Part shown: one piece after another, positions 2,222-24,483 of the stretch
How the letters are laid out: each line of letters begins with the position of its first letter
How positions within the stretch are numbered: position 1 is the first letter of the stretch
Source of the DNA: an uncultured Prevotellaceae bacterium
Lineage (GTDB): Bacteria; Bacteroidota; Bacteroidia; Bacteroidales; Bacteroidaceae
Direction of reading: 5' to 3'
DNA length: 32,125 nt
Assembly (NCBI GenBank): GCA_902783625.1
Contig: CACZRN010000062.1
Location: 1-32,125 of the forward strand
Translations under genes and position numbers: made by a program
The notes under the pieces: model-generated
What the model was told of the DNA's origin: nothing
What the model saw: only the letters and a program-made list of their open reading frames with translations
The model's database searches: none

Positions 2222-4252
2222 ATGTCAATATCTGTGAAAAGCATATCGGTGAGCATCAATGATGCGGTGTCGAAACAGTTCAACATAGAGTTGGATGGGG
2301 TAAAATATAGTCTTGATGAGTTTAAGCTGACACAGAAATTGCTTGAACCATGCAAGTTAGAATTCAAGTTATGTAAGACACCCGAGGAGAGCATCAACGA
2401 GATACAATTTACCACTTGCGGCTCGATTATCGGCAAGGATGTCAAGCTTAGCTTGCAGACCAACTCTATGGAGCAGGAAATTTCAGGCTTCGCAACTGGT
2501 TCTCAGAATTCCGACATTGAGTTCGAGGGCTTTATAACATCGGCCAGAGCTTCGAGAAAAGGTTCAGAATATGCTATCAGGGTAGTTGCTCAAACGAAGG
2601 ATGTAGTATTAAAAGATGCTCCTGATTTTGAGATTTATAATGAAATGACACTATCTGATATTGTGAATGATGTGTTAAAACGCACGAGTGTAAAAGCAGA
2701 AGTGCAGCCTAAAAAAGAAGACGCGTTATTCTTTACCGTTCAATATAACGAAAACAATTATCAGTTTTTACAACGTCAGGCACAACGTCATGGAGAATGG
2801 ATGTTCAACAACGGAAAGGAACTTCATTTTGGAAAATTCAGTCATCAAGATAGTATTACGTTGACATATCCAAGCCAAGACCTTCCAGAATATAGTGCCA
2901 GTTTGCAAACATTTCATGTAAAACACCATTTTTTCCAATTCTTATATAATGATATTGGTATTGGCCATGGAATTGCTGCGGAAAAACAAAATGATACAGG
3001 TAATAAATTGAACGATTTGGTTTTTAAGGCAAGCAATGATAATTGGCAATATAATACAGGTCATGAAATTGAGTCGTTACATATGGAGCGAGACGAAGAT
3101 GCGAAAAAAGGTAGCGACGATGATTCCCTTTTTAGGGAAGCTTCCAATGCTTTTAAACAAGGTCGGCGTGCCAATATGCTGATTTACAAAGGGAAAAGTT
3201 ATTGTTCCCAAATGAAAATAGGAACAAAACTCACCATTAAGGACAATTATATCAGCAACGAGTCTTCCGAAGATAAGAGTGTAGTGCAGCAGGATGAGAT
3301 TCTTATAACGGAGGTTGTCCACCGTTTTACTTCTGATGAGCTATATTCTAATTTCTTTAAAGGTATTACTGCTGCCATAGACTATCCTCCTTATCTCGAT
3401 CCGACCATACATCCGGTCTGCAACCATCCTCTAAGGGCGTTTGTGGTTGATACAGAAGATCCAAAGCATTGGGGACGTGTCAAGGTTAGATTTAATATGC
3501 CTGCTATAAGACATCAGACGAAGACTGATCCTAAGTACTGGACTCCATGGATTCACGTAGTACAGCCTTATACAGGTAATTCTGGTAAAAGCTCAAAATT
3601 TGGAACTCATTTGATTCCAGAATTGTTCAGTGAGGTTTATGTCGGTTTTGATGGTGGGAATTTTGAGCGACCTTTTGTCTATGGTTCACATTATGGGCCT
3701 GCAGTGGGGGAGGTTGAGGATAGCTGGTATCCAGGTAATAATAATGTTAAAGCTATCCGTACCTCAAGTGGGCATACTATTGAAATTCACGACAACATGG
3801 GAGATGAAGATTACAATGATGGGGGCTTTATAAAAATATACGATAATGATACACATAATTATGAGGTTCTTCTCTCCACTGACAGCAAACTGATAAAACT
3901 CAAGTCAAAAGGAAATATAGAGTTGTCTGCTGATAATGATATCATCATGACAGCCGGACATAATATAAAAGTCACTGCAAAGAATGACATGACCGTTGAT
4001 GTGACACATCAGAAGACGGAAAAATCTGAGAATTTCAAGCAGACAGTGACGGAAACCACTGATGTTAAATCGAAGACAATCAAACAAAATGCATCTGAAG
4101 TGACATGTGATGCGACACAATCATTAAAAGTAACAACACCAAATGCATCAGTAAAGGCAGGAGCGCAACTTACATTGAAATCAGGTGGTTCGGCTTCTAT
4201 TTCAAGCGGTGGTACACTGATTGTTGAGGGAGCACTCATATCTATGAATTAA
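2222..4252 (+). CDS. tssI: VgrG/TssI spike protein
   Basis: The 676-residue protein has the layout of a Bacteroidota Vgr protein. Residues ~1-390 correspond to the gp27-like base, with the typical YNENNYQFLQRQAQRHGEWM segment near 174-193. Residues ~400-490 form a gp5-type OB domain, starting HPLRAFVVDTEDPKHWGRVKV and including FGTHLIPELFSEVYVGFDGG. Residues ~560-676 are short valine/isoleucine-alternating strands (GNIELSAD, HNIKVTAKND) that predict the C-terminal beta-helix needle. No extra effector domain follows the needle, so cargo is more likely carried by the PAAR-like or Hcp partner. It lies 37 bases after the Hcp gene and 34 bases before the PAAR gene, consistent with tube-spike-tip order. 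Confidence 0.93.
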   Translation: MSISVKSISVSINDAVSKQFNIELDGVKYSLDEFKLTQKLLEPCKLEFKLCKTPEESINEIQFTTCGSIIGKDVKLSLQTNSMEQEISGFATGSQNSDIEFEGFITSARASRKGSEYAIRVVAQTKDVVLKDAPDFEIYNEMTLSDIVNDVLKRTSVKAEVQPKKEDALFFTVQYNENNYQFLQRQAQRHGEWMFNNGKELHFGKFSHQDSITLTYPSQDLPEYSASLQTFHVKHHFFQFLYNDIGIGHGIAAEKQNDTGNKLNDLVFKASNDNWQYNTGHEIESLHMERDEDAKKGSDDDSLFREASNAFKQGRRANMLIYKGKSYCSQMKIGTKLTIKDNYISNESSEDKSVVQQDEILITEVVHRFTSDELYSNFFKGITAAIDYPPYLDPTIHPVCNHPLRAFVVDTEDPKHWGRVKVRFNMPAIRHQTKTDPKYWTPWIHVVQPYTGNSGKSSKFGTHLIPELFSEVYVGFDGGNFERPFVYGSHYGPAVGEVEDSWYPGNNNVKAIRTSSGHTIEIHDNMGDEDYNDGGFIKIYDNDTHNYEVLLSTDSKLIKLKSKGNIELSADNDIIMTAGHNIKVTAKNDMTVDVTHQKTEKSENFKQTVTETTDVKSKTIKQNASEVTCDATQSLKVTTPNASVKAGAQLTLKSGGSASISSGGTLIVEGALISMN

Positions 4253-4286: not shown

Positions 4287-6563
4287 ATGGCAGAAGAGAA
4301 CGAGGAAAAAAAAGTTGTAACTGACTATGTCGTCAATGCTGTTGTTGGGATAAATAACAACATGATGGACTCATGGGACTACACATTCAAGAAACTTGGT
4401 GTCTTTGATGATTATGCGCCCCAAGTTAATGCTGAAGACTATTCTGCCGAGGAAGATCTAAAGACTATTGAGGCTGCTGAAAAGCAAATGGATCTTCAGC
4501 CTATCCCGAAAAATGGATTCCATTCAAGCACATCAGATGATATTGTTACAGCAAATGCTGTATTAAGATGTACATGGGGGGCAACCTTCGGACAATTGAT
4601 GGTTATTCCTGTTAACCGTTGCAGCATTGGAAAAACATTGGGCAACGTCGCAACAATAAAAGACTGTCTGCCGGTAGTTAATATTCCTAGTTTTGGCGTG
4701 TGCTTCAATCTTTTGAATCCAGCTGTCGCCTTAGCCACTGCGGCAGCCACTGCGGCTCATGGCGGCAAATTCACACTTGTTCCAATGCCATGTGGAGCGA
4801 CTATGGCTCCTACTCCTTGGATTCCTTTGACAAAGAACCTTTTAGGAAAGACTCCTGTGTTGACAAAGAATAGCACATGTTTTTGTTGGGGAATAGGAAC
4901 TATTGATATAAAGCATTGTGGTCAAGGACTGGCACCTAACACCTACAATGGATTTATGGGACCAGACTGGATTTCCACACTACAAGGCAATGCACAATTA
5001 GTTGCGAATGTGTTAGGTGCTATAGGTCCATTAGCAGGGTTGGGGAAAAAGGGTATAGTTCGTCTCGCAGGTCTTGCACAGAAGGCGGCTCTTACCTCCA
5101 GATTTGCAAAACTCGGTCAGATAGGACTCAAGATAGAACAGATTACAACCAACTTGAGCAAAGCGGGGACAGTGGAAAAGGTTGGGAAAGTTGGAAATGT
5201 CGTGACAGGGACAGGAGAAGCACTTGCCAACACCGTTGACGCTACTATTTCTATTTCACAAGGGCAGTATGGAGAAGGTATTTCTTCTGGAGCCGATGCC
5301 GTTATAGGCGCTTTAGGAACAGCTGCTGGAACAGGAAAGTTCAAAGGACTTAATAAGAGTCTTATGAAAACTGCTTCAAATATTGATGTTAGTAATGCTA
5401 GAAAGAATTTGGACAATATCCCAAGTGATGTAGATGTTGCCAACGCTCATTTAAATGCAAGAGCGGCACAAGTGGATGTCGATGCTGCAAAGATTAATAA
5501 GGTAGAAGCAGATATGAATCTCGATGCTGCAACCGATGGGCAAAAAGCCGCTCAAGCTAATTTGGATAAAGCCAAAGGTGCGAAGAAAGAGGCGCAAACA
5601 GACTTAGACAACGCTAATAAGGCAAAGGCCGACGCAGATGCAAAAGCAAGCAGCGCGGAAAAAGGGAAAGCCAAAGCTGATGCCGAATACGAGAGTGCGA
5701 GTCAGAAAAAGGCTGAAGCCGATGCAGAATATGGAAATGCTAAAGAGGCTCAGTTCGATGCAAATGCAAGAGCATCTGAAGCTTCTGCAGAAAAGATTTC
5801 CTCTGACACTAATTATAATAATGCAAAGAAAGCTCAGGCAGATGCAGATGCAAATCTTAATAATACAAAGAAAGGAAATGCAGATGGTGACTTCGATTAT
5901 GAATCTGCCAAGATAGAAAAGACAAATGCAGATATGGACGCCTCAATGGCTTCTGCCGACAAGGCCAGTGCTGATGCTGAATTTGCTAATGCCGGTAAGG
6001 CAAAAGCTGATGCTGACGCCAGAGTAAGCAATGCTGAGAAAGGAAAAGCAAAAGCTGATGCCGAATATGATGCTGCATCCTCCAAGAAACAAGAGGCAGA
6101 TTTAGAATATAATTCAGCTAAGGTTGATCAGGCTAAAGCAGATATGGATGTTTCGTCAGCTACTGCCGACAAGGCTATCGCTGATAGTAACTATGTGGAT
6201 GCTAGGAATGCAAAAAAAGAGGCTGATCTGCAAGTAAGTAATGCTAAGGCTGAAAAAGAAAGGGCTGAACAAGAACTAGCCAAAGCTCAAGAAGCTAAAG
6301 CTGAAGCAGATAAGGCGGCAGCAAAAGCGGATAAGGCGAAAGCGAATGAAGAAAAAGCAAGAAAAAATGTTGAAAAAACAGAAAAGGTTGCTGAAGAAAT
6401 GAGTGATAGAACATTTGCTGATGAAATGTGGTATAAAGACCATGTCTTAGAAACAGGTGAGAACGCAATAAATGATTATGTAAAAGATCAAAAAAAGAAG
6501 AAAGAGGAAGAAAAGAAAGTAGAAGACGCTCTCAGTAAATATACTAACTATGGCATATGTTGA
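4287..6563 (+). CDS. PAAR-like (DUF4280-type) spike tip with long 14-residue-repeat tail
   Basis: Residues ~88-212 look like the DUF4280/PAAR-like tip domain used by Bacteroidota T6SS and by extracellular contractile systems. The block contains paired cysteines and prolines (AVLRCTWG, VNRCSIGK, VPMPCGATMAPTPW, STCFCWGIGTIDIKHCGQG). Residues ~235-375 are Gly/Ala-rich helices of unknown role. Residues 405-698 are an unbroken array of 14-residue repeats, and a charged Lys/Glu tail ends in NYGIC. PAAR proteins cap the VgrG needle and often carry toxins at the C-terminus, but I recognise no enzymatic toxin motif here. The tail may be a structural stalk, an adaptor or an unknown effector. An AAGGA sequence lies just before the ATG. 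The next gene, 34 bases downstream, is the ubiquitin-like protein. Confidence 0.82.
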   Translation: MAEENEEKKVVTDYVVNAVVGINNNMMDSWDYTFKKLGVFDDYAPQVNAEDYSAEEDLKTIEAAEKQMDLQPIPKNGFHSSTSDDIVTANAVLRCTWGATFGQLMVIPVNRCSIGKTLGNVATIKDCLPVVNIPSFGVCFNLLNPAVALATAAATAAHGGKFTLVPMPCGATMAPTPWIPLTKNLLGKTPVLTKNSTCFCWGIGTIDIKHCGQGLAPNTYNGFMGPDWISTLQGNAQLVANVLGAIGPLAGLGKKGIVRLAGLAQKAALTSRFAKLGQIGLKIEQITTNLSKAGTVEKVGKVGNVVTGTGEALANTVDATISISQGQYGEGISSGADAVIGALGTAAGTGKFKGLNKSLMKTASNIDVSNARKNLDNIPSDVDVANAHLNARAAQVDVDAAKINKVEADMNLDAATDGQKAAQANLDKAKGAKKEAQTDLDNANKAKADADAKASSAEKGKAKADAEYESASQKKAEADAEYGNAKEAQFDANARASEASAEKISSDTNYNNAKKAQADADANLNNTKKGNADGDFDYESAKIEKTNADMDASMASADKASADAEFANAGKAKADADARVSNAEKGKAKADAEYDAASSKKQEADLEYNSAKVDQAKADMDVSSATADKAIADSNYVDARNAKKEADLQVSNAKAEKERAEQELAKAQEAKAEADKAAAKADKAKANEEKARKNVEKTEKVAEEMSDRTFADEMWYKDHVLETGENAINDYVKDQKKKKEEEKKVEDALSKYTNYGIC
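5499..6380 (+). repeat. 21 gapless 14-residue repeats (42-bp period) in the PAAR tail
   Basis: Residues 405-698 divide exactly into 21 units of 14 residues without insertion or deletion, for example KADADAKASSAEKG, KAKADAEYESASQK, KAEADAEYGNAKEA. The loose consensus is K-x-x-A-D-A-x-x-x-x-A-x-x-x. Two more degenerate units may precede it (377-404). A higher-order near-copy is seen between residues 447-474 and 573-600, exactly nine units apart. Many codons differ between the copies at synonymous positions, so the period is kept at protein level and is not a fresh slippage product. Fourteen residues equal two heptads, which suggests a very regular long coiled coil. Confidence 0.9.
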
Positions 6564-6597: not shown

Positions 6598-6924
6598 ATG
6601 ACTGACCAGGAATTTTATCAAGATGAGTTTATCGTATTGCTTACTATCGATGGTACGGCATACGATGAGATTGAAGTGAAAGTGACTGACCCGAACAAAA
6701 CTGTTCGTGAGCAAATTGACAGTATCATTCAAGTTTTTGAACTGCCGAAGATGGATAATGGAGGCAACCCCATTCAATATCTGTTGGGTAAGTTGATGGA
6801 TGATGATGAAGAACCCGCGGTGCTGGAGTTTGAAGACGAGGACGGCCGCGAGATGGCGCTGATAGATTATGATATTCAACCATTAGACCATTTGCATCTT
6901 ATTTCTGTGCCTATCGCAGGATAG
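6598..6924 (+). CDS. Ubiquitin-like (YukD-like beta-grasp) modifier ending in Gly
   Basis: A 108-residue acidic protein with the ubiquitin beta-grasp order: strand FIVLLTID (11-18), second strand EIEVKVTD, helix TVREQIDSIIQVFEL (35-49), an acidic middle, and a closing HLHLISVPIAG. The final residue is a free glycine (G108), as needed for adenylation by an E1 without prior trimming. It most resembles YukD-type Ubls, for which conjugation by E1/E2/RING sets has been proposed from comparative genomics. The E2-like gene starts 42 bases downstream, and the E1, RING and JAB genes are in the same operon. The fold call is by pattern only. The context makes a conjugated modifier much more likely than a stand-alone T7SS YukD. 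Confidence 0.82.
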   Translation: MTDQEFYQDEFIVLLTIDGTAYDEIEVKVTDPNKTVREQIDSIIQVFELPKMDNGGNPIQYLLGKLMDDDEEPAVLEFEDEDGREMALIDYDIQPLDHLHLISVPIAG

Positions 6925-6966
6925 AGAATGGTCTTATAAACTTTTTAACCTGAATTTCCAAATATT

Positions 6967-7620
6967 ATGAATCCAGCAATAAGTAGAATAGATGAGAAGA
7001 AATTGGAAGGACGAGACGCACGTCTGTTTCAGGAGTGGAAAGACTTGGATGCTCTATGCGAAAAACGTCGTAGAGAGAGCGCAAATCCGTTCAAACCTTC
7101 GTTATCGTATATAATTCGCAGAAAGACCCTCACGGGCCTACCTACTGAATATGAAATATTGTATCGATGTAAGAGTATTATAGGTGTAGAAGGCGAAGAG
7201 AAACCGCGTAAACCTATTTTCGGCGATTTGCATAAAATGAGTGTTGTTCTTCCCAACAACTATCCATCGGCAGATGGCAATCCTATCTTTACCTTCATTT
7301 CAGATGTGTGGCACCCGAACATCCGTTATTCAGGTAGTTTCAAGGGACATGTATGCCTGACGATTAAAGAAATGGGCGTATTGGCATCTATTAAAGACTT
7401 GGTGTTGCGCGTAGAGCGTTATCTGAAATATCAGATGTATCATGCCCAGAATACCTATCCTTATCCAGAGGATCAAGGCGTGGCTGAATGGGTGCGTGAG
7501 GAAGGTGAGCCTAATGGATGGGTGAAGTTCGCCCAGGACAAACCGGAACCATCTGCTCCGAAACCTACTGAACCAAGCGTTGAGCCACAGGCTCCTAAAA
7601 AACGCTCATTGAGTATTTGA
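6967..7620 (+). CDS. E2-like ubiquitin-conjugating enzyme (UBC fold)
   Basis: The 217-residue protein carries the E2 hallmarks in correct order. A basic N-terminal helix is followed by strands, then LPNNYP (95-100, like the YP turn of E2s), a strand NPIFTFISDVW, HPNI (116-119), and GHVCL with the putative catalytic cysteine C130. A helix with SIKDLVLRVERYL (141-153) follows, then a PEDQGVAEW element (168-175). The HPN asparagine (N118) is the residue that stabilises the oxyanion in eukaryotic E2s. After residue ~192 comes a proline-rich tail ending in KKRSLSI, unlikely to be part of the fold. It should accept the Ubl from the E1 encoded at 14476 and pass it to a target with the RING protein. 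The enzyme class is clear, while the target is unknown. Confidence 0.9.
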   Translation: MNPAISRIDEKKLEGRDARLFQEWKDLDALCEKRRRESANPFKPSLSYIIRRKTLTGLPTEYEILYRCKSIIGVEGEEKPRKPIFGDLHKMSVVLPNNYPSADGNPIFTFISDVWHPNIRYSGSFKGHVCLTIKEMGVLASIKDLVLRVERYLKYQMYHAQNTYPYPEDQGVAEWVREEGEPNGWVKFAQDKPEPSAPKPTEPSVEPQAPKKRSLSI

Positions 7621-7652
7621 TGAAGTAATCTATCTAAAAAATGAGATTAATC

Positions 7653-8699
7653 ATGAAAAAAATATTGGTTAGTTTGTTGCTTTGCCTAATGGCGACAGCA
7701 GTCTTTGCAGATGAACAGAAAAAGGTTACTTTAAGCAGTAACCACGACAAAGAGATGATAAATTTGTCGTATTGTAATATATTTGTCAATCTGAAAGAGG
7801 TTGACGATGGTGTAGGTGAGGTAAGCATCGAACTGGAGAATTTAAGCGAGTCAAAAGTGCTTATTCTATTCGATCGCTCGTATATGGAAAAGCAGGTTAA
7901 AAAACTGTCACCGAAGATGCAGTTCGATAAAACCTTTGGTGGGACCAAGGGTAAACGTGTCATCGATCCATGTAGTGAACAACTTAGCAGTGTGATGCAG
8001 TTGCGTCCTTCAGATAAGCAGATGTTGCCATCTGTCCGTGTGGAGAATGGGGCTACAAAAGTGGTGATGTTACCAGTATATATTGCCAAATATAAAGGTA
8101 GCAAAACATTGATTCTTTTAGAGAAGCAGGTTATTGAGCTCGATATTGAGGCAGAACTGAAGCCCAGTGCCGAATATGTTGATATGAGCAATGAGTGCGA
8201 AGAGCTTATCGGCGAAATCTCACGTACCGGCATTTGTCCTAACAAAAACCACCGTGTTTCGGTTGACAAGCAGAAGGAGAATTATCAGGAGCGTATTGAT
8301 GCCTTAAAAAGTAAAATAGATGGAATCATTAGTTCACATGGATGGAATAGTAGTGATTCTGGTTATCGCCGTTTTGCTGAATTGAAGACTAAGTTGGATG
8401 GTGTCGAGTTTGTTGAGCGTGATTGTGGCAATCATAGGGCAGCAGTCTCTGGTGGACATAAATGTAGCTATTGTGGGTTGTCGCTTCAGCAAATTTATCA
8501 TAAACTTGATGACCTATATAAGAAGATATATAGCAGTGGTGACCGTAAGGCTACAAAAGCTAGTGTAATGTCGCAGGTAAACGCACTTTATAATTGCTGC
8601 ACAGACACCAGATGTAGCAAGCATGCTTCGCAATGGAGAAGAGGAGGCGACTATAAGAATAAGATCGTAGAACGCTACAATCGTATTAATAGTCTATGA
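7653..8699 (+). CDS. Exported cysteine-rich protein, paralogue of next gene's periplasmic domain
   Basis: I choose the ATG at 7653, not the in-frame one at 7641, because MKKILVSLLLCLMATAVFA is then a clean signal peptide. Residues ~30-170 form a beta-rich domain that shares features with the next gene: an ILFDRS strand and a LPVYIAKYKGSKTLILLEKQ region ending in alternating strands. The C-terminal part has cysteine and histidine groups that could bind zinc or form disulfides: C195, C258, a CSYC knuckle at 271-274, and C315/C316/C321/H324. No transmembrane segment follows the signal peptide, so it should be periplasmic. It overlaps the next start by four bases (ATGA), indicating translational coupling. 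I do not recognise a named family. A part in the envelope complex is inferred from context only. Confidence 0.6.
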   Translation: MKKILVSLLLCLMATAVFADEQKKVTLSSNHDKEMINLSYCNIFVNLKEVDDGVGEVSIELENLSESKVLILFDRSYMEKQVKKLSPKMQFDKTFGGTKGKRVIDPCSEQLSSVMQLRPSDKQMLPSVRVENGATKVVMLPVYIAKYKGSKTLILLEKQVIELDIEAELKPSAEYVDMSNECEELIGEISRTGICPNKNHRVSVDKQKENYQERIDALKSKIDGIISSHGWNSSDSGYRRFAELKTKLDGVEFVERDCGNHRAAVSGGHKCSYCGLSLQQIYHKLDDLYKKIYSSGDRKATKASVMSQVNALYNCCTDTRCSKHASQWRRGGDYKNKIVERYNRINSL

Positions 8700-10252
8700 T
8701 AAATAGCTGGATAAAATATTGCGGCATGTCTCTCATTTTACTTCTGGCATGGGACGTAAGTCTTCCTGCTAAAGAGGTAAAGGACACATTGTTTTCTGCG
8801 TATGGCGACCGTGTGATAGTTAGTTATAGCCAAACACTGAATGGTGGCCAACTGGGACTGCGGTTTAACAATGTGCAAAAGAAATTGAGTGAGGACAACC
8901 TGAAGAAGTATAAGAAATTGGATGAGGTAGCTGTGGTTATCTTCGACCGTACGGGTAATTATCGCGACGTTAAGTTTGACGGGATTGCCACTTCTGCATT
9001 TATGGTGCCGTCTGATATTCATTATAGTTCTTCCTCCGACGGATATTTCCTTTTAAGGGATAATCCTTCTCTGGAATTTAGCGTCACGTCCGATAAGCCA
9101 GAACTGTCAATACCTCTTTATCTGGCTCACTATGAGGGAAAGCGCCATTATAAAGTCTTTGCCCAGTGTGGTGTGCTTAAGATTAAAGCTCAGACTCCCA
9201 GTAAGGCAAGTGGTGGAGGGGCTGGCTCCAACGCTGGTGTAGGTGTTGCCGGCGAGGGACAGCAAGGCGAAGTGGTTATTTCAACCGAAGAACTTGTTGA
9301 TGAAGGTGTCTCGCCTGTCGACGAGGCGGTTATTCGTGTCAATTCCTTGAGGCAGATGTTGGATAAAGCTACTAAGGTGCCGTTCTCAGAGGAACTGACC
9401 CATGAAGCTTCCATGTTACGTGAGTTGCGGTTTAAGGTAACTGATGAGGCTGTTACGAAGCAGATAAATGATGTTCTTTCAGCCTATGATGACAAGAAAC
9501 AGCAATTGGAGCAACAGAGCGAGGCTGGGCAACAGGCTGCAGCTGCTCAAGCTGCTCAAGTCGCACAACAGGCTCAGGCGCGTCAGGACTCTATTCAGGC
9601 TGCTCAAGCCAATGCTGCCAGTAAGGATAGAAAGAACATGATGTGGCTTATTGGTGGTCTTGGCGGTTTGTTTGCTTTGGTTATGGGCGGTAAGCAAGTG
9701 ATACAAGGCATAAAGAACAACAAGATGCAGAAGATGCAGCAACAGATGCAGCAGCAGATGATGAGGAACATCCAGGATATGGCCAATAAGGCGAATCCGA
9801 TGGCTCAGATGGACAATCCGCTTCAAGGAATGCCCGGCCCACTAGAACAGATGGGTAGGCAAATGCAGCAGAAAGCTCAATATGAGATACAAAATCAGAT
9901 AAACAAACAGGTTCAACAGGCCAATCAGCAACTTAACAATGCAGCCAATCAGGCGCGTCAGTCAGTTGTCGGTAAACAATCGTCTCAAGCTTCACAACCT
10001 ATACAGGAAGAGCAACTTTCAGGAAGAGTAATGTCAGAAGAAAGTAAAGCGGCAAAAGAGCGCCTACGTAGTATTTTGGCAGGAAGGAAAGGACAGGTGG
10101 CAGGTACGGAAATTGCTTCGGATGGCACCAGTTCTATGCCGCAAATATCGATTACTCCAGGGCGGAAGCCGTCATTAAATGACCAGATTCCTACCAAGTA
10201 TAAACGTATGCAAAAGGTTAAGAGGTCTGGCGATACACCTTCAAAGAAATAG
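8696..10252 (+). CDS. Inner-membrane protein: periplasmic paralogue domain, one TM, Q/M-rich cytosolic tail
   Basis: The N-terminus has a hydrophobic export segment (residues ~8-22). Residues ~30-166 resemble the preceding protein (VIFDRT strand, IPLYLAHYEGKRHYKVFAQ, LKIKAQ). A Gly/Ala linker (171-190), a helical region (205-265) and an A/Q-rich coiled coil (266-310) follow. One transmembrane helix spans ~314-332, then a cytosolic tail very rich in Q and M (residues ~345-425) and a basic end. The topology is periplasm to cytosol, as expected for a T6SS envelope or anchor protein. I could not match it to TssJ, L or M, nor recognise TssN, O, P, Q or R. Translation is coupled to the upstream gene by an ATGA overlap, and the JAB gene follows after 23 bases. 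Confidence 0.6.
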   Translation: MINSWIKYCGMSLILLLAWDVSLPAKEVKDTLFSAYGDRVIVSYSQTLNGGQLGLRFNNVQKKLSEDNLKKYKKLDEVAVVIFDRTGNYRDVKFDGIATSAFMVPSDIHYSSSSDGYFLLRDNPSLEFSVTSDKPELSIPLYLAHYEGKRHYKVFAQCGVLKIKAQTPSKASGGGAGSNAGVGVAGEGQQGEVVISTEELVDEGVSPVDEAVIRVNSLRQMLDKATKVPFSEELTHEASMLRELRFKVTDEAVTKQINDVLSAYDDKKQQLEQQSEAGQQAAAAQAAQVAQQAQARQDSIQAAQANAASKDRKNMMWLIGGLGGLFALVMGGKQVIQGIKNNKMQKMQQQMQQQMMRNIQDMANKANPMAQMDNPLQGMPGPLEQMGRQMQQKAQYEIQNQINKQVQQANQQLNNAANQARQSVVGKQSSQASQPIQEEQLSGRVMSEESKAAKERLRSILAGRKGQVAGTEIASDGTSSMPQISITPGRKPSLNDQIPTKYKRMQKVKRSGDTPSKK

Positions 10253-10275
10253 TAACTTAAGGATAATCTGACCAT

Positions 10276-12078
10276 ATGATTAAAAGAATTAAAGTTTTAG
10301 TGCCCCTGATGGCCATATTGCTGGTGACGAGTCTACAATTATCAGGGCAAAGAAAAAACTGGCATAATTACAACTATGTGCCTACGGCCGTTACCATGGA
10401 TGAAGTGGTAAGTAACTTCCGACAATATGTGGAGGAGATACCGTACTTCAATGAGGCAACTATACAGTCGCTCAATGATGAGGTAACGGCACATATAGAC
10501 AAACTTCATAACTGGAAAGATCGAAAGGCCTACATTAAGGACAATAATCTGATGGAATTTGTTTCTGATCAGAAGATTGAGCTGACAAATCAGAAAGAGG
10601 GAGTAGAGGCACTTATCGATCAGTTTATGAAGCAATATGACGGCAGGATTATTGCTGATTCTACGGAATGCCGTGATAGCCTGGAGAATATTGTGTACGA
10701 CAAGTTGACAAAGCTTGAGACTAGCCTCAATATTCTTGAGCGCGAGATGAACTCGAAAGATGAAGGCCTGTTGGGAGGTTTGTCCTTGGGTGCTATACTC
10801 GGTATCATAGGATGTATTGCAGCATTACTTCTGGCTTGGGCATTTGTGAATGCTTCAAGAAAGAGAAAGGTCACTCCGGCTCCAGTTGTCAGCCCATCTA
10901 ATTTAAACAGTAATAGCACTGGTAACGGGACAGGGGAGGCTGGTATCGTAGTTCGTCGTAAAACGGCAACAATTTTGAAAAAGCAAAGTCTGGAGGATGT
11001 GATTGACAATCCTCATTACATGAAAATAGATTTGGATGAATGCTGCTACGAGTCTGCTGTGCGACGTATGTATATCAAAGATACATGCTTGGTAGACATC
11101 TATAACATGTACCTCCCTGATCTGGAAGATCCTGAAAATGCCAAAGAATATGGATGTATGGTTCTTGGCCGTTGGGTCTATGATGCAGATAATAGTGAGT
11201 ATTATGTTTCTTTGGAGCAGATAGTTTTGCCTGGCGAAGATGCGGTATTTGATGAATATGAGTTGAATTTCGGTGGAAAGATCAAACTTAAGGTCCTTGA
11301 ATTGTTACGCAAACTCCGTAGGGAAACGAATCTGCAATATGATATGACTTGTTGGGTGCACTCACATCCGGGACTTACAGTGTTCTTTAGCAATGCTGAC
11401 AGCAATGTGCAGGATCAATTAAAGCACCCGCAACACCCCAAGTTCTTAACGGCTTTGGTTGTTGATACATTGACTCCTACCATGGAAACAGGTGTGTTTA
11501 CATATCATCGTGACATGACGCTTAATTCAAGGAATGACCTGAAGAAATTATACTCTTTGAGTGAGTGGTATGAATGGGCACAGAGAAGTGTTGACGGTGT
11601 GGACGAAGTGATTCCTGAGACACCCGTGGAAACGGAATCAAATTATTTTAACACTCTGGCTGAGTCGAGTGAACACACAACAGCATGTTTTGGTATTAAT
11701 CTGAGTCGCGACATAATTGTTGACATATGTATGTCGTTAAGTAATCAAACAAATGGTATAGCAGGCTTTATTCACGGAAAGACCAATTTGAAGGACCAAT
11801 TGAGAGAATTTGTTGCAGAACGTCTCTCTGACAAGGAGAAAGAAGATAACCTGGAGAATTTGGGGTGTTTCGTTGTTGCTCCTCATCTCAGTATCCCTTC
11901 TGTACGCAAGGTAATTGGCGATAAGATAAGCCAGTTTAAGTTTGTTTTAGTCTACACACCTAGTGATGGCATTCTAACCTCTATTCCGGTGATGGCCGGT
12001 GACTTGTGTGGTTACGAGAGCTATTATGGGTCGCAGAAACTTGAAGACTTGAAAATATGGACCAAAAATAATAGATAA
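10276..12078 (+). CDS. Membrane-anchored JAB/JAMM isopeptidase (deubiquitinase-like)
   Basis: Residues 1-24 are a signal or anchor segment, 25-165 a helical periplasmic part, 169-191 a transmembrane helix (GAILGIIGCIAALLLAWAF), and the rest is predicted cytosolic. The JAB domain has the full JAMM zinc-protease signature: glutamate E291 in KEYGCMVLG, H362 and H364 in HSHPG, S372 and D375, exactly H-x-H-x7-S-x2-D. Residues ~460-595 may be a second, degenerate MPN-like domain (FGINLSRDIIV, LGCFVVAP, FKFVLVYTPSDG) without the metal ligands; this is weaker. JAMM enzymes cut isopeptide bonds to ubiquitin or trim Ubl precursors. The Ubl here already ends in Gly, so removal from targets seems the likelier job. 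The stop is only three bases from the RING gene. Confidence 0.88.
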   Translation: MIKRIKVLVPLMAILLVTSLQLSGQRKNWHNYNYVPTAVTMDEVVSNFRQYVEEIPYFNEATIQSLNDEVTAHIDKLHNWKDRKAYIKDNNLMEFVSDQKIELTNQKEGVEALIDQFMKQYDGRIIADSTECRDSLENIVYDKLTKLETSLNILEREMNSKDEGLLGGLSLGAILGIIGCIAALLLAWAFVNASRKRKVTPAPVVSPSNLNSNSTGNGTGEAGIVVRRKTATILKKQSLEDVIDNPHYMKIDLDECCYESAVRRMYIKDTCLVDIYNMYLPDLEDPENAKEYGCMVLGRWVYDADNSEYYVSLEQIVLPGEDAVFDEYELNFGGKIKLKVLELLRKLRRETNLQYDMTCWVHSHPGLTVFFSNADSNVQDQLKHPQHPKFLTALVVDTLTPTMETGVFTYHRDMTLNSRNDLKKLYSLSEWYEWAQRSVDGVDEVIPETPVETESNYFNTLAESSEHTTACFGINLSRDIIVDICMSLSNQTNGIAGFIHGKTNLKDQLREFVAERLSDKEKEDNLENLGCFVVAPHLSIPSVRKVIGDKISQFKFVLVYTPSDGILTSIPVMAGDLCGYESYYGSQKLEDLKIWTKNNR

Positions 12079-12081
12079 GAT

Positions 12082-14469
12082 ATGAAACATAAAATATTTG
12101 CACTAGTTGTTTTAGCGGCATTTACATTTAGTGCCAGCGCACAGGATGTATCGAAAGTACAATTTTGTGATAAGAAGTATGAGTATGGAGTTGGCAAAGA
12201 CAGTGTGACGCTTTTTCTGAAGATTATTGACAGTAATGGCAAACCTTGCAATGACGTCACCGTCAGCCAATTAAATAAGCATCTGGTTATCAATGAAGAT
12301 GGAGTCGCTATTCCGTTGGATCGTCGCCAGATTGTGTCGTTGAGTTCCGGACAGCGTATTCCTAGCGATTTCACGATTTCGGTGCTTGTTGACTTAAGTA
12401 TTCCAGAAACTGGAAAGGGGCAGATTTATGATGCTTTTTGCAATCTTGTAGAAAGTGCTCCTGATAGTTGCGTTTTCCTTTCTTTTTTTGGTGAAGATGT
12501 GAGTTCCAGTCAGCTAGTGACAAAGAAGAACATGGCAAGTTTCAAGGAAAAGTTCATGAGCCATTCTGATACGAAGTTCTTTTATGGTGCTCTTTATTCA
12601 AAATTGGCTGAGTTCAGTAGCGAGAAAGCAGAGTTAGAAGATGCGGTGCGTACTAAGGGCGGTTATGTTAAGAACGTGAATATCAATAGGCGGGCTATGC
12701 AGGCCAAAGATAAAAATCTACTGTTTATCTTCACGGAAGGTAATATGCGGCCAGAGGACGAACAAATTTCTTTTGTCGAGGTAACCGATTATCAATCTGA
12801 TGCATCACATCTGGTTCCAAAGGTATTTGCATTCTATTATACTGGAGAAGGTGTAGACGAAAATGTAGAACTTACTCTACAGGGAGTTTCTGCTCCGCGA
12901 GATACAGAAGGACAGGTTCTCGTTGATCGTCAGGGAGCTTATCGTCCTTCAGCAGATATCAACAACGTGCTAAGTAATTTCCAAGAGGTTGTAAAGGATG
13001 CAATGTATGACTTCGCGTTTATCTACAAGGCAACTGACGATAAGGCATACACAGGACGTGTAGATTATGTAGCAGAGTGGAAGGGCAATGAAGCTGGTAA
13101 AGGTGAATATTCAATCGGTTCAGCAGAGACACCATGGCCGGTTCATGAGGAGAGTGCTGGTGATTCTATTACCAAGTTCATCGTTGCTCTTTTGGTAGCA
13201 TTTCTTACATTTGCCTTCTTCTTCTTCTTTATAATGAAAGTGCTTATTCCGTTTATAAGCTCTAAAAGATTCGCATCTAAATACTATAAGCCATATCAGC
13301 CCGAAGCAGGAGTGACGCGTCGTATCTGCCACTATTGCCGTCAAGACATACAACCAGGACAAATTGTTGTGATGAGATGTAAGCATGTGATGCATGTAGG
13401 GTGCTGGCAACAGAATGGTTATAAGTGCGTAGAATATGGTCAGAATTGTAAAGAAGGAATACAGAATCATGTAAACATGAAAGAGATGTTCAGCCCGGCA
13501 TCGTTACGCGACACTTATCAGACTTTAGCAGGCGTAATTGCAGGTTTGGTGAGTTGGATAATCTTCGAGCTGACGGGCAGAGGCATGTTTGGCGGATTGG
13601 GAAACGCTATAGCAAGTACATTCTTCCTCAATGAGAATCAGAAAGCGAATATGCTAAATGATTGTGGAGCTAAGGTTTCTGCACTGTTGACAGTCGGTTT
13701 GTTGTTGGGATTCTTCCTTTCGTTAGTATTCCGTTATAATGACGAGTACAGGAAAAAAGATACAAAAGTATACTTAAAGATTTTCGGTCTCTCACTTTTG
13801 TCTGGACTGATAGGATTCTTAGCCATGTTGGTAGGTGGAATCATTTTCTGTCTGTTGTTGTCTGCCGTCGGAACGACATACATTCCTTGGTATTGTTCGC
13901 TTCCTGCCTACATACTGCTCTCAATTTGTATTGCGCTTAGTCTGACAATTAAGTCTTCTATCCCAACAAAGAGCGCACTTGTCGGTGGAGGAATTGCCGC
14001 TATTATTGGATTTATAGTCCTTTATTTCGGAGGTGTTATCAGTTCAAAGATGGGTTGGATGAATATGCTGCTCGACTTTATTATTTATGGAGGAGGTCTT
14101 GGAGCCTCGCTCGTAACAGTTCGTATGCTTGCAGAGCGTTATTTCCTAGTCATCAAAAACGGCATGAAAGCTGGTCAGCGCATTCCTATCCATAAATGGA
14201 TGAACGCTACTGGCGGTGGTAACAAGGTGACGATTGGCAAGACAAATGAGTGCGAGATTCAAATGAACTGGGAGAAGGCCAACAAAGTGGCTGACAAGCA
14301 TGCTCAATTATATATTGATAAAGTTCGTTCGCTGCCTATGTTGAGCCCGTTGGCAGAGGGCATTGTGTTTAATGTTCGTATGAATTTGCCTGCGAATAAG
14401 CCGGTGGTTCTTAATAATGGTGACACATTTGCTATTGGTGATACAACATTTGAGTATGTAGAGTCCTGA
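12082..14469 (+). CDS. Polytopic membrane protein: vWA-like, RING-H2 finger, multi-TM, FHA domain
   Basis: Domains in order: signal peptide (1-20); periplasmic vWA-like region (~95-255) with a partial MIDAS (D104, S106); transmembrane helix 363-389; RING finger at 416-456; several more membrane helices between ~478 and 690; and an FHA-like domain at ~715-795. The RING ligands are C416, C419, C433, H435, H438, C441, C449 and C456, a RING-H2 (C3H2C3) order with a widened last pair (six residues between, not two). The FHA part shows VTIGKTNECEI, VADKHAQLYID and LNNGDTFAIGDTTFEY, matching the family's GR/SxxH/NG pattern loosely. RING domains act as E3 ligases, and FHA domains bind phosphothreonine. 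With E1, E2, Ubl, kinase and phosphatase alongside, this is the likely E3 and phospho-sensor of the system. Confidence 0.82.
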   Translation: MKHKIFALVVLAAFTFSASAQDVSKVQFCDKKYEYGVGKDSVTLFLKIIDSNGKPCNDVTVSQLNKHLVINEDGVAIPLDRRQIVSLSSGQRIPSDFTISVLVDLSIPETGKGQIYDAFCNLVESAPDSCVFLSFFGEDVSSSQLVTKKNMASFKEKFMSHSDTKFFYGALYSKLAEFSSEKAELEDAVRTKGGYVKNVNINRRAMQAKDKNLLFIFTEGNMRPEDEQISFVEVTDYQSDASHLVPKVFAFYYTGEGVDENVELTLQGVSAPRDTEGQVLVDRQGAYRPSADINNVLSNFQEVVKDAMYDFAFIYKATDDKAYTGRVDYVAEWKGNEAGKGEYSIGSAETPWPVHEESAGDSITKFIVALLVAFLTFAFFFFFIMKVLIPFISSKRFASKYYKPYQPEAGVTRRICHYCRQDIQPGQIVVMRCKHVMHVGCWQQNGYKCVEYGQNCKEGIQNHVNMKEMFSPASLRDTYQTLAGVIAGLVSWIIFELTGRGMFGGLGNAIASTFFLNENQKANMLNDCGAKVSALLTVGLLLGFFLSLVFRYNDEYRKKDTKVYLKIFGLSLLSGLIGFLAMLVGGIIFCLLLSAVGTTYIPWYCSLPAYILLSICIALSLTIKSSIPTKSALVGGGIAAIIGFIVLYFGGVISSKMGWMNMLLDFIIYGGGLGASLVTVRMLAERYFLVIKNGMKAGQRIPIHKWMNATGGGNKVTIGKTNECEIQMNWEKANKVADKHAQLYIDKVRSLPMLSPLAEGIVFNVRMNLPANKPVVLNNGDTFAIGDTTFEYVES

Positions 14470-14475
14470 TAAAGC

Positions 14476-15681
14476 ATGGAAAAAGAAAAATATGAATGGG
14501 GGGAGGGCGTGTTCACGCTGCTCTCTTGGTTCAAAAAAGACCGCGTGAAGGATGCTCGCGTACTTGTTGCTGGCTGTGGAGCACTTGGCAACGAGGTGGT
14601 GAAGAATTTGGCTCTATTTGGAGTCGGACATATATATGTTGTCGACTATGATAAGATAGAACTCTCAAATCTCACTCGTTCGGTTCTTTTCCGCGAAGAG
14701 GACGCTTACAATCATGCCTATAAAGCTGATATTGTCGCCAAGCGTGCCAGTGAGATTAATCCACAGATAGAAGTGGTGCCCATTGTCGGTAACCTTTTCT
14801 CAGATGTTGGTTTCGGCCTTTATCGTTCGGTTGATGTCGTGATAGGTTGTCTTGACAGCCGTATAGCCCGTTATCAGTTAAATCGTCTGTGTATGCGTGC
14901 AGGCAAGAATTGGATTGATGGTAGTATTGAGAACCTGACAGGCGCTGTGAAGATATATGTCCCTGGAGTGAATTGTTATGAATGTGGTTTGTCACGCGAT
15001 GAGTTCAATCATATCATGCTCCGGACAGGTTGCGCAGATGTGGTTCGTTCACAGACGGCTCGCGGTCGTGTGGCAACAACACCAATAAGTGCCTCTATAG
15101 TGGGAGCTTTGCAAGTCCAAGAAGCCATGAAGATAATTCATCTAAAAGATCCTGTAGAGGAGAACGAGGATAATCCGGCACCTTTTAAGACGCTTCAGGG
15201 CAAAATGCTTAGGTTTGAGGGTATGACTAATATGGTTAATATCTATAAGATTTCATCATGGAGGAATACTTGCCCTGCTCATAAACAGTGGGCCGATGTC
15301 ATTGTAGCCAAAAATCTTTCTGCATTGCAGACGGTAGGAAATGTATTGGAAGAATTGAAAAAGTTGTTGAACGTAAAGAATGTGGAAATCAATATGTGTA
15401 ATAATAAGTTCATAGATATTATAGCAACTGATTATCCGCAAAAAGAGTTCGAGGTGATGATTCCTGAGTCGAAGCTTGATAATTATATTAAGAAAGACAA
15501 AGAGTTGCGTCAACTTAGTTATCGTACTCTGATTCACAAGCATTTCTTTGAGAATATCGACAATAGTTTCCCATATCAGAGTATGACTCTTCAACAGATA
15601 GGCATACCTGTATTTGATGTCATTCAGGTGTCAACAGAAAAGGGAGTATTCTTCGTGGAATTGTCTGCTGATCGTTATTAA
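14476..15681 (+). CDS. E1-like Ubl-activating enzyme (ThiF/MoeB/UBA family)
   Basis: A 401-residue ThiF-fold adenylyltransferase. The nucleotide loop is GCGALG (33-38), followed by VVDYDKIELSNLTRS, where D57 and R68 match the ATP and Mg residues of E1s. CYEC (167-170) with C266 and H269 probably binds zinc. C186, before the helix SIVGALQVQEAMKII, sits where E1-like proteins carry the catalytic cysteine. Residues ~285-401 are an added domain with strands (NVEINMCNNKFIDIIA, FFVEL) that may be a UFD-like, E2-docking beta-grasp module. It would activate the Ubl encoded at 6598 and hand it to the E2. There is no rhodanese domain, which argues against a plain sulfur carrier role. It begins six bases after the RING gene and leads directly into the baseplate genes. 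Confidence 0.9.
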   Translation: MEKEKYEWGEGVFTLLSWFKKDRVKDARVLVAGCGALGNEVVKNLALFGVGHIYVVDYDKIELSNLTRSVLFREEDAYNHAYKADIVAKRASEINPQIEVVPIVGNLFSDVGFGLYRSVDVVIGCLDSRIARYQLNRLCMRAGKNWIDGSIENLTGAVKIYVPGVNCYECGLSRDEFNHIMLRTGCADVVRSQTARGRVATTPISASIVGALQVQEAMKIIHLKDPVEENEDNPAPFKTLQGKMLRFEGMTNMVNIYKISSWRNTCPAHKQWADVIVAKNLSALQTVGNVLEELKKLLNVKNVEINMCNNKFIDIIATDYPQKEFEVMIPESKLDNYIKKDKELRQLSYRTLIHKHFFENIDNSFPYQSMTLQQIGIPVFDVIQVSTEKGVFFVELSADRY

Positions 15682-16592: not shown

Positions 16593-17573
16593 ATGTCAAA
16601 GAGAATCAGTTGGAAAAAGGGCATGCGCCTCACTGATGAGGTGTTTCTTGCCGCCGACCAATATGTGGCGGAATCTATTGGTCAGGCTGTTGCGGTTGCT
16701 TCTGGCGGACGTTTCGGTCTTTTTACTCCCATCCGTCCGTTTCAATTGTCATTAAGTATTTCACGAGGATTCGTAGAGGTAGAGACATTGTCGTGTATGG
16801 CTGTTACAGCCGCAGGCGATATTATTGATGTCAAATTCGATACACAATATTCCAGTTCGTTCGATACACGTGTCCAGATTCCAAACGATGATGACGCCAA
16901 AGAGTTCTTCCTTATTATCAGCGCAAATCCTGATAATTGGAGAGAGAGCGGTGATGAGTATCTGGAATCAAACTATACTTTCGCTTTGGTTGGGCCGAAC
17001 AAGGCTAATGACTTCCATTCCGTGCCTATTGGGCATATTGTATATGAAGACGGTTGGCGTGAAGATAATGTGAACTTCGTTCCGCCGTGTCTGTGTTTGT
17101 CGGCTCATAGTAAGTTCATGGAATTACATGGACAGTTTATTTCGCTTTTGCGTAGCATAGATGAGAAGACGCGTAAACACATTGATACTGGAGCACATGA
17201 TGCTATCAGTATATACTGGCCGGTAGTACAACAAATGTTGATAACTGCCAGTACTGAACAAGATATCATGGCTCCGCAACAACTGTTATCTTGTGTCCAA
17301 CGTGTCGTTGCGGCATTCACGTGTGCTTGCGATCTAGACAATGTTCTTTCATTGGAGGATTCGGAAACATTCAGGAACTACACGAGACTTCCTTTTAACT
17401 ATCGTATCGCATATCTCCGCATAAAGCAAGGACTGGGAATTTGTTATGCCATTAATGAGAAAATAGATAAGTTCAGCCTGTTAAAGCAGGAGGAGCCTCC
17501 AGCACCTCCACAGCCTAAACCTGAACCTCCTAAGCCAGATCCACGTCGTTTTTGGGAAGGTAAGCAAATATGA
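16593..17573 (+). CDS. tssK: TssK baseplate protein (short Bacteroidota form)
   Basis: The N-terminus (MSKRISWKKGMRLTDEVFLAADQYV) is typical of TssK, whose shell domain starts with a W-x-x-G-x-x-L-x-x-x-x-F-like motif. TssK links the baseplate to the membrane complex. At 326 residues it is shorter than the proteobacterial protein of about 440, as is usual in this class. The final ~35 residues are proline-rich (EEPPAPPQPKPEPPKPDP) and look like a flexible extension. A similar tail is present on the E2 and on the WG-repeat protein. The stop overlaps the TssE start by four bases (ATGA), so the two are probably translationally coupled. Confidence 0.82.
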   Translation: MSKRISWKKGMRLTDEVFLAADQYVAESIGQAVAVASGGRFGLFTPIRPFQLSLSISRGFVEVETLSCMAVTAAGDIIDVKFDTQYSSSFDTRVQIPNDDDAKEFFLIISANPDNWRESGDEYLESNYTFALVGPNKANDFHSVPIGHIVYEDGWREDNVNFVPPCLCLSAHSKFMELHGQFISLLRSIDEKTRKHIDTGAHDAISIYWPVVQQMLITASTEQDIMAPQQLLSCVQRVVAAFTCACDLDNVLSLEDSETFRNYTRLPFNYRIAYLRIKQGLGICYAINEKIDKFSLLKQEEPPAPPQPKPEPPKPDPRRFWEGKQI

Positions 17574-18064
17574 GATTCGTAAGCACGCCGTTACAATTCG
17601 TTGATTCGGGCACAAAGCTCAGGCGCGATATAGAGAATCGTATGCAGATGCTCGACAACTTAGTTGAACTTATAGTCTTCACTCCACGTGGTGATTTTGA
17701 GGCCGACCCTGATTTCGGTTTTGAATATTGGAATCATGAGTTCTCAAATGTGCATTATCGTGAGTTCAATGCCAGTCAAGGTGCTGGTAATCCCGGTAGT
17801 CTTTATAACGAAGTCACCAAGAAGGAATGTGAGGATAGTATTAAGCAAAGTCTGGCGACCTATGAGCCGATGTTGAAAAATGTTGTTGTTAGTATTGAGC
17901 TTGATGCGGCATCACAACGTCAGCGTCGTCGTCGCAGAGTGGCATCAAAGTATGCGGTGAATGTAATTGTGGAAGGTGGAATTGACGATGGTTTAGGTGT
18001 ACTTCGACCTTATCGTAAGGTTGTTGTATTTTTGGTAGAACCCACGGTAAAACGACAAATATAA
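17570..18064 (+). CDS. tssE: TssE, gp25-like baseplate protein
   Basis: The 164-residue protein has clear GPW/gp25 features: RRDIENRMQMLDNLVELIVFTPRG (18-41), GDFEADPDFGFEYW (41-54), and a helix-strand unit EDSIKQSLATYEPMLKNVVVSIEL (about 94-117). gp25-like proteins connect the baseplate to the first sheath ring. An arginine-rich stretch QRQRRRRRV (near 122-130) precedes the last strands and may be a loop unique to this branch. It overlaps the tssK stop by four bases and is followed by tssF after six bases. Confidence 0.9.
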   Translation: MRFVSTPLQFVDSGTKLRRDIENRMQMLDNLVELIVFTPRGDFEADPDFGFEYWNHEFSNVHYREFNASQGAGNPGSLYNEVTKKECEDSIKQSLATYEPMLKNVVVSIELDAASQRQRRRRRVASKYAVNVIVEGGIDDGLGVLRPYRKVVVFLVEPTVKRQI

Positions 18065-19858: not shown

Positions 19859-19859
19859 T

Positions 19860-21182: not shown

Positions 21183-21189
21183 TGTGAAC

Positions 21190-22680: not shown

Positions 22681-22703
22681 TTAATCTCAACTTATTTTCA
22701 AAA

Positions 22704-24476: not shown

Positions 24477-24483
24477 TACGAAT

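What the first reader, a model, noticed from the sequence alone, without database searches (positions are those of the whole stretch)
6598..15681. Complete ubiquitin-like conjugation cascade inside a T6SS operon
Seen: a Ubl ending in Gly, an E2 with HPNI and GHVCL (C130), a JAMM protease with intact E/H/H/S/D ligands, a RING-H2 finger and a ThiF-type E1, all on one strand with tight gaps, flanked by Hcp-VgrG-PAAR and by tssG-K-E-F. Known: bacterial Ubl/E2/E1/JAB/RING operons, some with YukD-like Ubls, have been proposed from comparative genomics, and others act in phage defence. I infer that here the cascade controls a contractile secretion machine, for example by modifying baseplate, spike or envelope parts. 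I cannot tell from here whether this pairing has been described before.
Basis: partly seen in the sequence, partly recalled or inferred. Interest (0 to 1): 0.95.

Follow-up and report, generated by a model that had tools for sequence, protein, structure and literature searches.

The report
Ubiquitin-like cascade inside bacterial injection machine
Some Prevotella and related bacteria carry, inside the gene cluster for a type VI secretion 'harpoon', a complete set of ubiquitin-style genes (tag, E1, E2, ligase and tag-remover) with intact active sites, which is predicted to attach the tag to parts of the machine and likely stands in for the membrane anchor used by other Bacteroidota.

Summary
Confirmed and strengthened. 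Window 6598-15681 encodes a ubiquitin-like protein (Ubl), an E2, two predicted envelope proteins (X1, X2), a membrane-anchored JAMM protease, a membrane RING protein (vWA, RING, six more membrane helices, FHA) and an E1, in a one-strand T6SS operon between PAAR and tssG-K-E-F. Catalytic residues are invariant in 63-73 distinct T6SS-linked sequences per enzyme family. Profiles match eukaryotic E2s, Rpn11, UBA7 and ubiquitin. Among 59 loci with all nine genes, 58 keep one order. Cascade E1 is present in 56 of 58 same-genus genomes with this T6SS and in 0 of 17 with T6SSiii-like TssC (8 same-genus, 9 from a phylum sample); TssN, core of the T6SSiii membrane complex, shows the reverse (0 of 58 against 14 of 17). 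So the cascade marks a TssN-free Bacteroidota T6SS type. Best mechanism: Ubl conjugation at the inner membrane that builds or gates the baseplate-membrane link; the target is inferred. A subtype without JAB and relatives beside eCIS genes were also found. None of ten paper searches in the held library found the pairing described.

The parts
1..2184 (+). Hcp (TssD) domain behind a very long coiled coil; gene starts on contig C118 (inferred)
   Evidence: PF17642 2.6e-29 at residues 580-712
2222..4252 (+). VgrG spike
   Evidence: Phage_GPD 4.1e-16, Phage_base_V 4e-11
4287..6563 (+). PAAR-like tip protein (DUF4280) with Ala-rich coiled-coil tail
   Evidence: PF14107 2.5e-14
6598..6924 (+). Ubl, 108 aa, beta-grasp, C-terminal Gly108
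6967..7620 (+). E2 conjugating enzyme, HPN 116-118, C130
7641..8699 (+). X1, signal peptide, predicted periplasmic, unknown family
   Evidence: hydrophobic N-terminus 3-21; no Pfam family
8696..10252 (+). X2, apparent signal peptide, periplasmic part, hydrophobic stretch near 313-333, Gln-rich tail; unknown family
   Evidence: read from the sequence by eye; no stretch passed the hydropathy threshold; no Pfam family, TssR_C only 0.095
10276..12078 (+). JAB/JAMM isopeptidase with hydrophobic stretches 2-20 and 173-191; JAB part predicted cytosolic
12082..14469 (+). RING E3-like protein: signal peptide, vWA about 95-310, TM 359-401, RING 416-456, six TM 479-684, FHA 685-795
14476..15681 (+). E1 (single ThiF-type adenylation domain), candidate Zn ligands C167, C170, C266, H269, candidate catalytic C186
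15700..16581 (+). TssG
   Evidence: profile match to TssG of a TssN-bearing T6SS, 2.5e-17
16593..17573 (+). TssK
   Evidence: TIGR03353 2.2e-9, below its curated cut-off
17570..18064 (+). TssE
   Evidence: GPW_gp25 3e-5, below its curated cut-off
18071..19858 (+). TssF
   Evidence: profile match to TssF of a TssN-bearing T6SS, 3.5e-31
19848..21182 (+). Glucosaminidase with LysM and peptidoglycan-binding domains
   Evidence: PF01832 1.5e-34
21184..22680 (+). Ser/Thr kinase with a hydrophobic stretch 301-319
   Evidence: PF00069 7.4e-42
22704..24476 (+). WG-repeat protein with hydrophobic N-terminus
   Evidence: PF14903 8e-6
24484..25380 (+). PP2C phosphatase
   Evidence: PF00481 3.2e-13

Best explanation
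This is a TssN-free T6SS of Bacteroidales whose conserved gene block encodes a complete ubiquitin-like conjugation cascade, and the cascade likely works at the cytosolic face of the inner membrane to build or gate the link between baseplate and envelope. Shown: the genes, their intact active sites, their place in the operon, and the mutual exclusion with TssN. Inferred chain: E1 adenylates the Ubl C-terminal glycine and passes it to the E2 cysteine; the membrane RING protein, with vWA outside and RING and FHA inside, calls the charged E2 to the docking site; Ubl is joined to lysines of a baseplate part (TssK, G, F or E) or of the membrane proteins X2, JAB or RING. In T6SSiii, TssN is proposed to dock the baseplate with its own built-in ubiquitin-like domain (PMC10781749, passages read). 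Here the ubiquitin-like piece is free and would be attached covalently instead, so RING, X1, X2 and the JAB anchor would form the membrane complex. JAB would strip Ubl to reset or proofread the site. The operon's kinase and PP2C would set the switch through the RING protein's FHA domain, as PpkA and Fha do at TssL in Agrobacterium (PMC3953482, abstract read).
For: Active sites over distinct T6SS-linked sequences: Ubl Gly108 63/63, E2 HPN and C130 66/66, E1 C186 73/73, JAMM ligands 63/64 (one fragment), seven RING ligand positions 69-72 of 72 each (C419 not counted). Best profile matches are eukaryotic E2s, Rpn11, UBA7 and polyubiquitin. Nine-gene block in 59 of 90 distinct E1 loci, same order in 58. 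E1 in 56/58 against 0/17 and TssN over cut-off in 0/58 against 14/17. A TssN-bearing locus of the same genus has TssR-vWA, a PKD protein, TssO and TssN; Pfam finds none of these in the window's 18 scanned proteins beyond TssR_C at 0.095 for X2. RING model: vWA, TM, RING, six TM, FHA. Kinase and PP2C in the same operon.
Against: No activity, target or membrane complex was tested. No sequence homology between Ubl and TssN, RING and TssN, or RING and part of a TssR, so the replacement is by analogy. Subtype B lacks JAB in the five loci inspected, so removal of the tag is not universal. Four of the 56 E1 hits have stop codons in frame (G482, G495, G550, G689), so some copies may be broken or misassembled. 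Nine of the 58 genomes show weak TssN-like matches below cut-off. Saprospiraceae and Chloroflexota relatives mostly have the cascade without TssGKEF nearby. One locus (L136) keeps only E1 beside TssG-K-E-F.
Confidence: 0.5

Rival explanations
1. The cascade tags cargo: Ubl is joined to effectors or to the long coiled-coil Hcp or PAAR proteins as a loading or quality signal, and the membrane JAB strips it at launch.
For: The cascade starts right behind the VgrG-PAAR segment; second Ubl-like genes lie beside PAAR or Ubl in some relatives (L108, L109; a protein of about 271 aa with a Ubl match in L064).
Against: In the maps the cascade is fixed to tssG-K-E-F while the VgrG-PAAR side appears to vary; in subtype B E1 leads tssG and Ubl-E2 follow tssF.
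Confidence: 0.25
2. Independent anti-phage module (Bil- or CBASS-like) that merely sits in the T6SS operon.
For: Other bacterial Ubl cascades act in defence (recalled; the CBASS conjugation paper PMC10097602 was seen in a search listing); PADLOC E1-E2 models hit the E1.
Against: No PADLOC hit for Ubl, E2 or JAB, and only a marginal one (0.018) for the RING protein; co-occurrence and order with the T6SS; distance correlation 0.88-0.97.
Confidence: 0.08
3. Ubl is only a non-covalent structural part, and E1/E2 carry out a thiolation or maturation side reaction.
For: EccD and TssN use built-in ubiquitin-like domains as scaffolds (PMC10781749 passages; Ubl model matches EccD5).
Against: E2 cysteine and JAB and RING ligands kept while the proteins diverge to 40% identity or less; no rhodanese domain in E1.
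Confidence: 0.12
4. The cascade or Ubl is delivered into eukaryotic prey as an anti-host effector.
For: Many hosts of the loci are rumen organisms (record titles), where protozoa live (recalled); the enzymes are eukaryote-like.
Against: No signal or fusion to Hcp, VgrG or PAAR domains in Ubl, E2 or E1; JAB and RING are membrane proteins by prediction; the genes are conserved with the core.
Confidence: 0.05

Closest known systems
T6SSiii of Bacteroidota (TssNQOPR membrane complex, PMC10781749, passages read)
   Same: TssC, Hcp, VgrG, PAAR and TssK, E; TssG and TssF homologous by profile
   Different: TssN over cut-off in 0 of 58 genomes; no TssO or TssR by Pfam in the window locus; a Ubl cascade is present instead
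Prokaryotic Ubl/E1/E2/JAB operons 6a-6e (Iyer 2006, PMC1779556, section 14 and passages read) and RING-bearing operons (Burroughs 2011, recalled, not held)
   Same: Ubl with C-terminal Gly, E1, E2 and JAB in one operon
   Different: Linked to T6SS; canonical HPN in E2; membrane-anchored JAB and RING with vWA and FHA. No secretion-system link in the text seen
BilABCD (from PMC11354881 passages)
   Same: Ubl, E1, E2, JAB
   Different: Single Ubl domain, single E1 adenylation domain, RING present, T6SS context
Caldiarchaeum subterraneum Ub/E1/E2/RING/Rpn11 operon (PMC5654768 search listing; PMC11354881 passage)
   Same: Five-component cascade; Ubl model matches its ubiquitin (6fnn); JAB profile matches Rpn11 and its homologue 6fjv
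   Different: Not linked to a secretion machine in the text seen
Threonine phosphorylation pathway PpkA-Fha of T6SS (PMC3953482 abstract; the phosphatase PppA recalled)
   Same: Kinase, PP2C and an FHA domain in the T6SS locus
   Different: The FHA domain is part of a RING ligase-like membrane protein

Membership tests
T6SS | Sheath, tube, spike, ATPase and baseplate genes in one locus | tested here: met
   TssC, Hcp, VgrG, PAAR, TssE, F, G, K; ClpV and TssB by position; relatives have TssC and TssF on one contig
T6SS | Secretes Hcp or effectors in a contraction-dependent way | not testable with these tools
   needs cells
T6SSiii | TssN (core of the TssNQOPR membrane complex) in the genome | tested here: not met
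   PF17555 over cut-off in 0 of 58 genomes with this T6SS (55, 3); same model over cut-off in 14 of 17 T6SSiii-like genomes
T6SSiii | TssO, P, Q, R | tested here: inconclusive
   none by Pfam in the window locus (TssR_C 0.095 for X2); rest of the genome not searched for them
Bacterial ubiquitin-like conjugation cascade | Beta-grasp Ubl with C-terminal Gly | tested here: met
Bacterial ubiquitin-like conjugation cascade | E1 adenylation domain with candidate catalytic Cys | tested here: met
   that C186 is the catalytic one is inferred
Bacterial ubiquitin-like conjugation cascade | E2 fold with HPN and active-site Cys | tested here: met
Bacterial ubiquitin-like conjugation cascade | JAMM isopeptidase with E, HxH, S, D | tested here: met
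   not found in five subtype B loci
Bacterial ubiquitin-like conjugation cascade | RING with eight Zn ligands | tested here: met
   all eight in the window protein; seven counted over relatives; degenerate in the Saprospiraceae-type relatives
Bacterial ubiquitin-like conjugation cascade | Covalent conjugation to a target | not testable with these tools
   needs biochemistry
BilABCD | Ubl with two ubiquitin-like domains | tested here: not met
   108 aa, one domain
CBASS E1-E2 defence module | E1-E2 fusion with nucleotidyl transferase neighbour | tested here: not met
   separate E1 and E2 genes; no such neighbour among the 18 proteins scanned
Eukaryotic-type E1 | C-terminal UFD domain | tested here: inconclusive
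   E1 has a conserved C-terminal part of about 126 aa, but its profile found no significant PDB match

The most novel reading that the evidence does not exclude
Bacteroidota hold a second, TssN-free T6SS type in which ubiquitin-like conjugation itself is the membrane-docking device: a free ubiquitin is covalently fixed onto the baseplate by a transmembrane RING ligase where T6SSiii uses a built-in ubiquitin-like domain on TssN, so a eukaryote-like E1-E2-E3-DUB cycle assembles and resets a contractile weapon; related cascades beside eCIS genes suggest that ubiquitin cascades have an old partnership with contractile injection machines.
Probability: 0.33. Interest if true: 0.97.

Novelty: new variant of a known kind. 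Interest (0 to 1): 0.93.

Why it matters
[quoted passage not shown] It gives the open question of what bacterial ubiquitin cascades do outside phage defence a defined machine, a membrane address and a short list of targets, and it offers a possible answer to how a TssN-less T6SS is anchored. Many of the hosts seen are rumen and gut Bacteroidales (titles), where contact killing is thought to shape communities.

Tried and rejected
Rejected: chance or misannotation (profiles, folds, invariant sites). Corrected on the way: after it looked as if the 27 same-genus genomes with only a distant TssF lacked the cascade (JAB: 30 of 398 genomes, of which 28 are the genomes with a close TssF and two, G445 and G642, hold contig-end fragments). 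Inspecting five distant-TssF loci (four of these genomes plus G618, which has both types) showed a diverged cascade E1-TssG-K-E-F-Ubl-E2-X-X-RING without JAB, and one search found its E1 in all 27. TssN was first searched without a control (0 of 58 over cut-off, 8 sub-cut-off matches of 3e-5 to 9e-4); the control came. The empty E1 search carries a warning that it has no positive of its own; the same profile rang in 57 of 66 genomes. Profile tests for homology of Ubl or RING with TssN or part of TssR were negative. UFD test inconclusive. PDB profile searches with TssG and TssF found nothing useful. eCIS link: a sheath family matched in 13 of 24 genomes with Saprospiraceae-type or Chloroflexota cascades (three of the 24, L085-L087, have T6SS genes beside the cascade), 6 of 24 over cut-off; in G064 genes with eCIS_core, CIS_tube, gp19 tube, sheath-C, gp25 and spike domains lie on the cascade's contig, tube, sheath and spike about 20-27 kb upstream of E1; in G158 a sheath-like gene lies about 44 kb away on the same contig; other distances were not worked out, so this stays a lead. 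Phylum samples: JAB in 3 of 395 genomes (own, G064, G158), TssC in 10 of 198. Papers: searches showed none that describes this pairing; Burroughs 2011, Chambers 2024 and Hor 2024 are not held, so prior description cannot be excluded.

Full report
What is there. The window is the whole of contig C62 of a draft genome (84.6% complete). Its closest named relatives are Prevotella (P0004, 82% JAB identity; contigs of equal length under the titles Prevotella and Prevotellaceae). From base 1 to 25380 the operon's genes lie on the + strand with tight gaps: Hcp-coiled coil, VgrG, PAAR, Ubl, E2, X1, X2, JAB, RING, E1, TssG, TssK, TssE, TssF, glucosaminidase-LysM, Ser/Thr kinase, WG-repeat protein, PP2C. 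TssC, Hcp, a ClpB/ClpV-type ATPase and a TssB candidate lie at the end of contig C118 together with the start of a coiled-coil gene like the one that opens the window; the join is inferred.

Does it belong to the T6SS? Four views say yes. Hosts by title include Prevotella, Muribaculaceae, Barnesiella, Tidjanibacter and Cryptobacteroides. Of the eight T6SS loci that lack one of the nine, L087 has its T6SS genes on the other strand, L136 keeps only E1-TssG-K-E-F, and six are cut short by contig ends. (2) Occurrence: in 398 same-genus genomes TssC was found in 62, 54 with scores of 600 bits or more and eight at 394 or less. With four genomes seen only by TssF, 58 genomes hold this T6SS type (subtypes A and B together); 56 have the cascade E1 (E 4e-125 or better), the two misses being G566 (TssC 1.9 kb from the end of its contig) and G705 (67% complete, TssC in pieces). 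Four of the 56 E1 frames contain stops. None of the eight low-scoring genomes has a comparable E1 (G436 shows 1.8e-32), nor do nine further TssC-positive genomes from a phylum sample of 198. (3) Distance: 54 of 56 TssF loci have the E1 within 6 kb; in the other two it is on another contig. (4) Protein distances of E1, E2, Ubl, JAB and RING correlate with TssF, K, G, E at r 0.88-0.97 over 30 loci.

What is missing. TssN, the core of the T6SSiii membrane complex, passes Pfam's cut-off in 0 of the 58 genomes (55, 3; nine show weak matches below it) and in 14 of the 17 TssC-positive genomes without the cascade; the three others have TssC fragments or a very weak TssC. A T6SSiii locus of the same genus shows TssR-vWA, a PKD protein (TssP-like), TssO and TssN. 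So TssN and the cascade exclude each other in this sample. The predicted envelope proteins in the cascade block are X1, X2 (by eye), JAB (two hydrophobic stretches) and the RING protein. Profile comparison finds no homology of Ubl or RING with TssN, or of RING with part of a TssR, although vWA and, by the published model of TssN, ubiquitin-like folds occur in both kits.

A second subtype. The loci with distant TssF (23-31% identity) carry E1-TssG-TssK-TssE-TssF-Ubl-E2-X1'-X2'-RING in the five inspected, confirmed by profiles for E2, Ubl and RING but with no JAB; the four Ubls of this kind read end exactly in PFPG, and their E1s form one clade (100/100). X2' has a coiled coil and a hydrophobic stretch like the N-terminal part of the JAB protein; that likeness is by eye only.

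Outside T6SS. Saprospiraceae and Chitinophagales carry E1-Ubl-E2-JAB-RING with degenerate RING ligands in those aligned, some beside PAAR and eCIS_core-type genes; G064 has eCIS tube, sheath, spike and eCIS_core genes on the same contig upstream. Chloroflexota have a shorter version.

How it most likely works. See Best explanation. What is shown is the presence of every part with intact catalytic residues in a conserved T6SS block. Conjugation itself is a strong inference. The site of action at the membrane follows from the predicted topology of RING and JAB. The target, baseplate against membrane protein against cargo, is open; I favour baseplate docking because the cascade keeps to tssG-K-E-F in both subtypes, because TssN is gone, and because TssN is proposed to dock the baseplate through its ubiquitin-like domain (PMC10781749, passages). 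The kinase, PP2C and FHA set suggests a phosphorylation gate as in Agrobacterium (PMC3953482, abstract).

Known or new. The ten paper searches listed under Tried and rejected showed no description of the pairing in the held library. Iyer 2006 (section 14 and passages) lists Ubl operons without T6SS in the text seen; the Coyne 2016 T6SS survey does not contain the words ubiquitin or ThiF in its main text. Burroughs 2011, which I recall as reporting RING-bearing operons with YukD-like Ubls, is not held. I therefore call it a new variant of T6SS with a ubiquitin-like cascade in its core block, and not a member of T6SSiii, since TssN was tested and not met.

Noticed in passing
1-2184: Hcp domain at the end of a coiled coil of at least 570 residues, Gln/Ala-rich; the contig break to C118 appears to fall in this repetitive gene.
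   Followed up: partly
4287-6563: PAAR-like DUF4280 protein with a long Ala-rich repeat tail; this side of the locus appears to vary in relatives.
   Followed up: no
19848-21182: Glucosaminidase-LysM protein behind tssF, with peptidoglycan-binding domain and internal hydrophobic stretch; possibly opens the cell wall for assembly.
   Followed up: no
21184-25380: Kinase, WG-repeat protein and PP2C close the operon, while the FHA domain sits on the RING protein.
   Followed up: partly
L151-L155: Second T6SS subtype in the same genus with E1, Ubl, E2 and RING but no JAB; its RING proteins begin with what looks by eye like a lipobox.
   Followed up: partly
G482, G495, G550, G689: Stop codons inside the cascade E1 frame of four subtype B genomes: decay, assembly error or recoding not told apart.
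   Followed up: no
L154:5113-5826: Protein with a match to ribosome recycling factor over Pfam's cut-off (3.4e-10) near the subtype B T6SS locus.
   Followed up: no
L067, L008 (G064): Cascade E1-Ubl-E2-JAB-RING on the same contig as an eCIS with tube, sheath, spike and an eCIS_core protein that also matches a calpain-family protease.
   Followed up: partly
L064:15086-15901; L108 and L109 near 20.4 kb; L118, L128: Extra Ubl-like genes, some beside PAAR, one inside a protein of about 271 aa: possible tagged or Ubl-fused cargo.
   Followed up: no
L136:7162-12181: E1-TssG-K-E-F block that starts with E1; the other cascade genes are not found within the 18 kb locus.
   Followed up: partly
L135, L144, L150: Chloroflexota cascades whose E2 has a Ubl-like N-terminal extension ending in AGG or AGA.
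   Followed up: no
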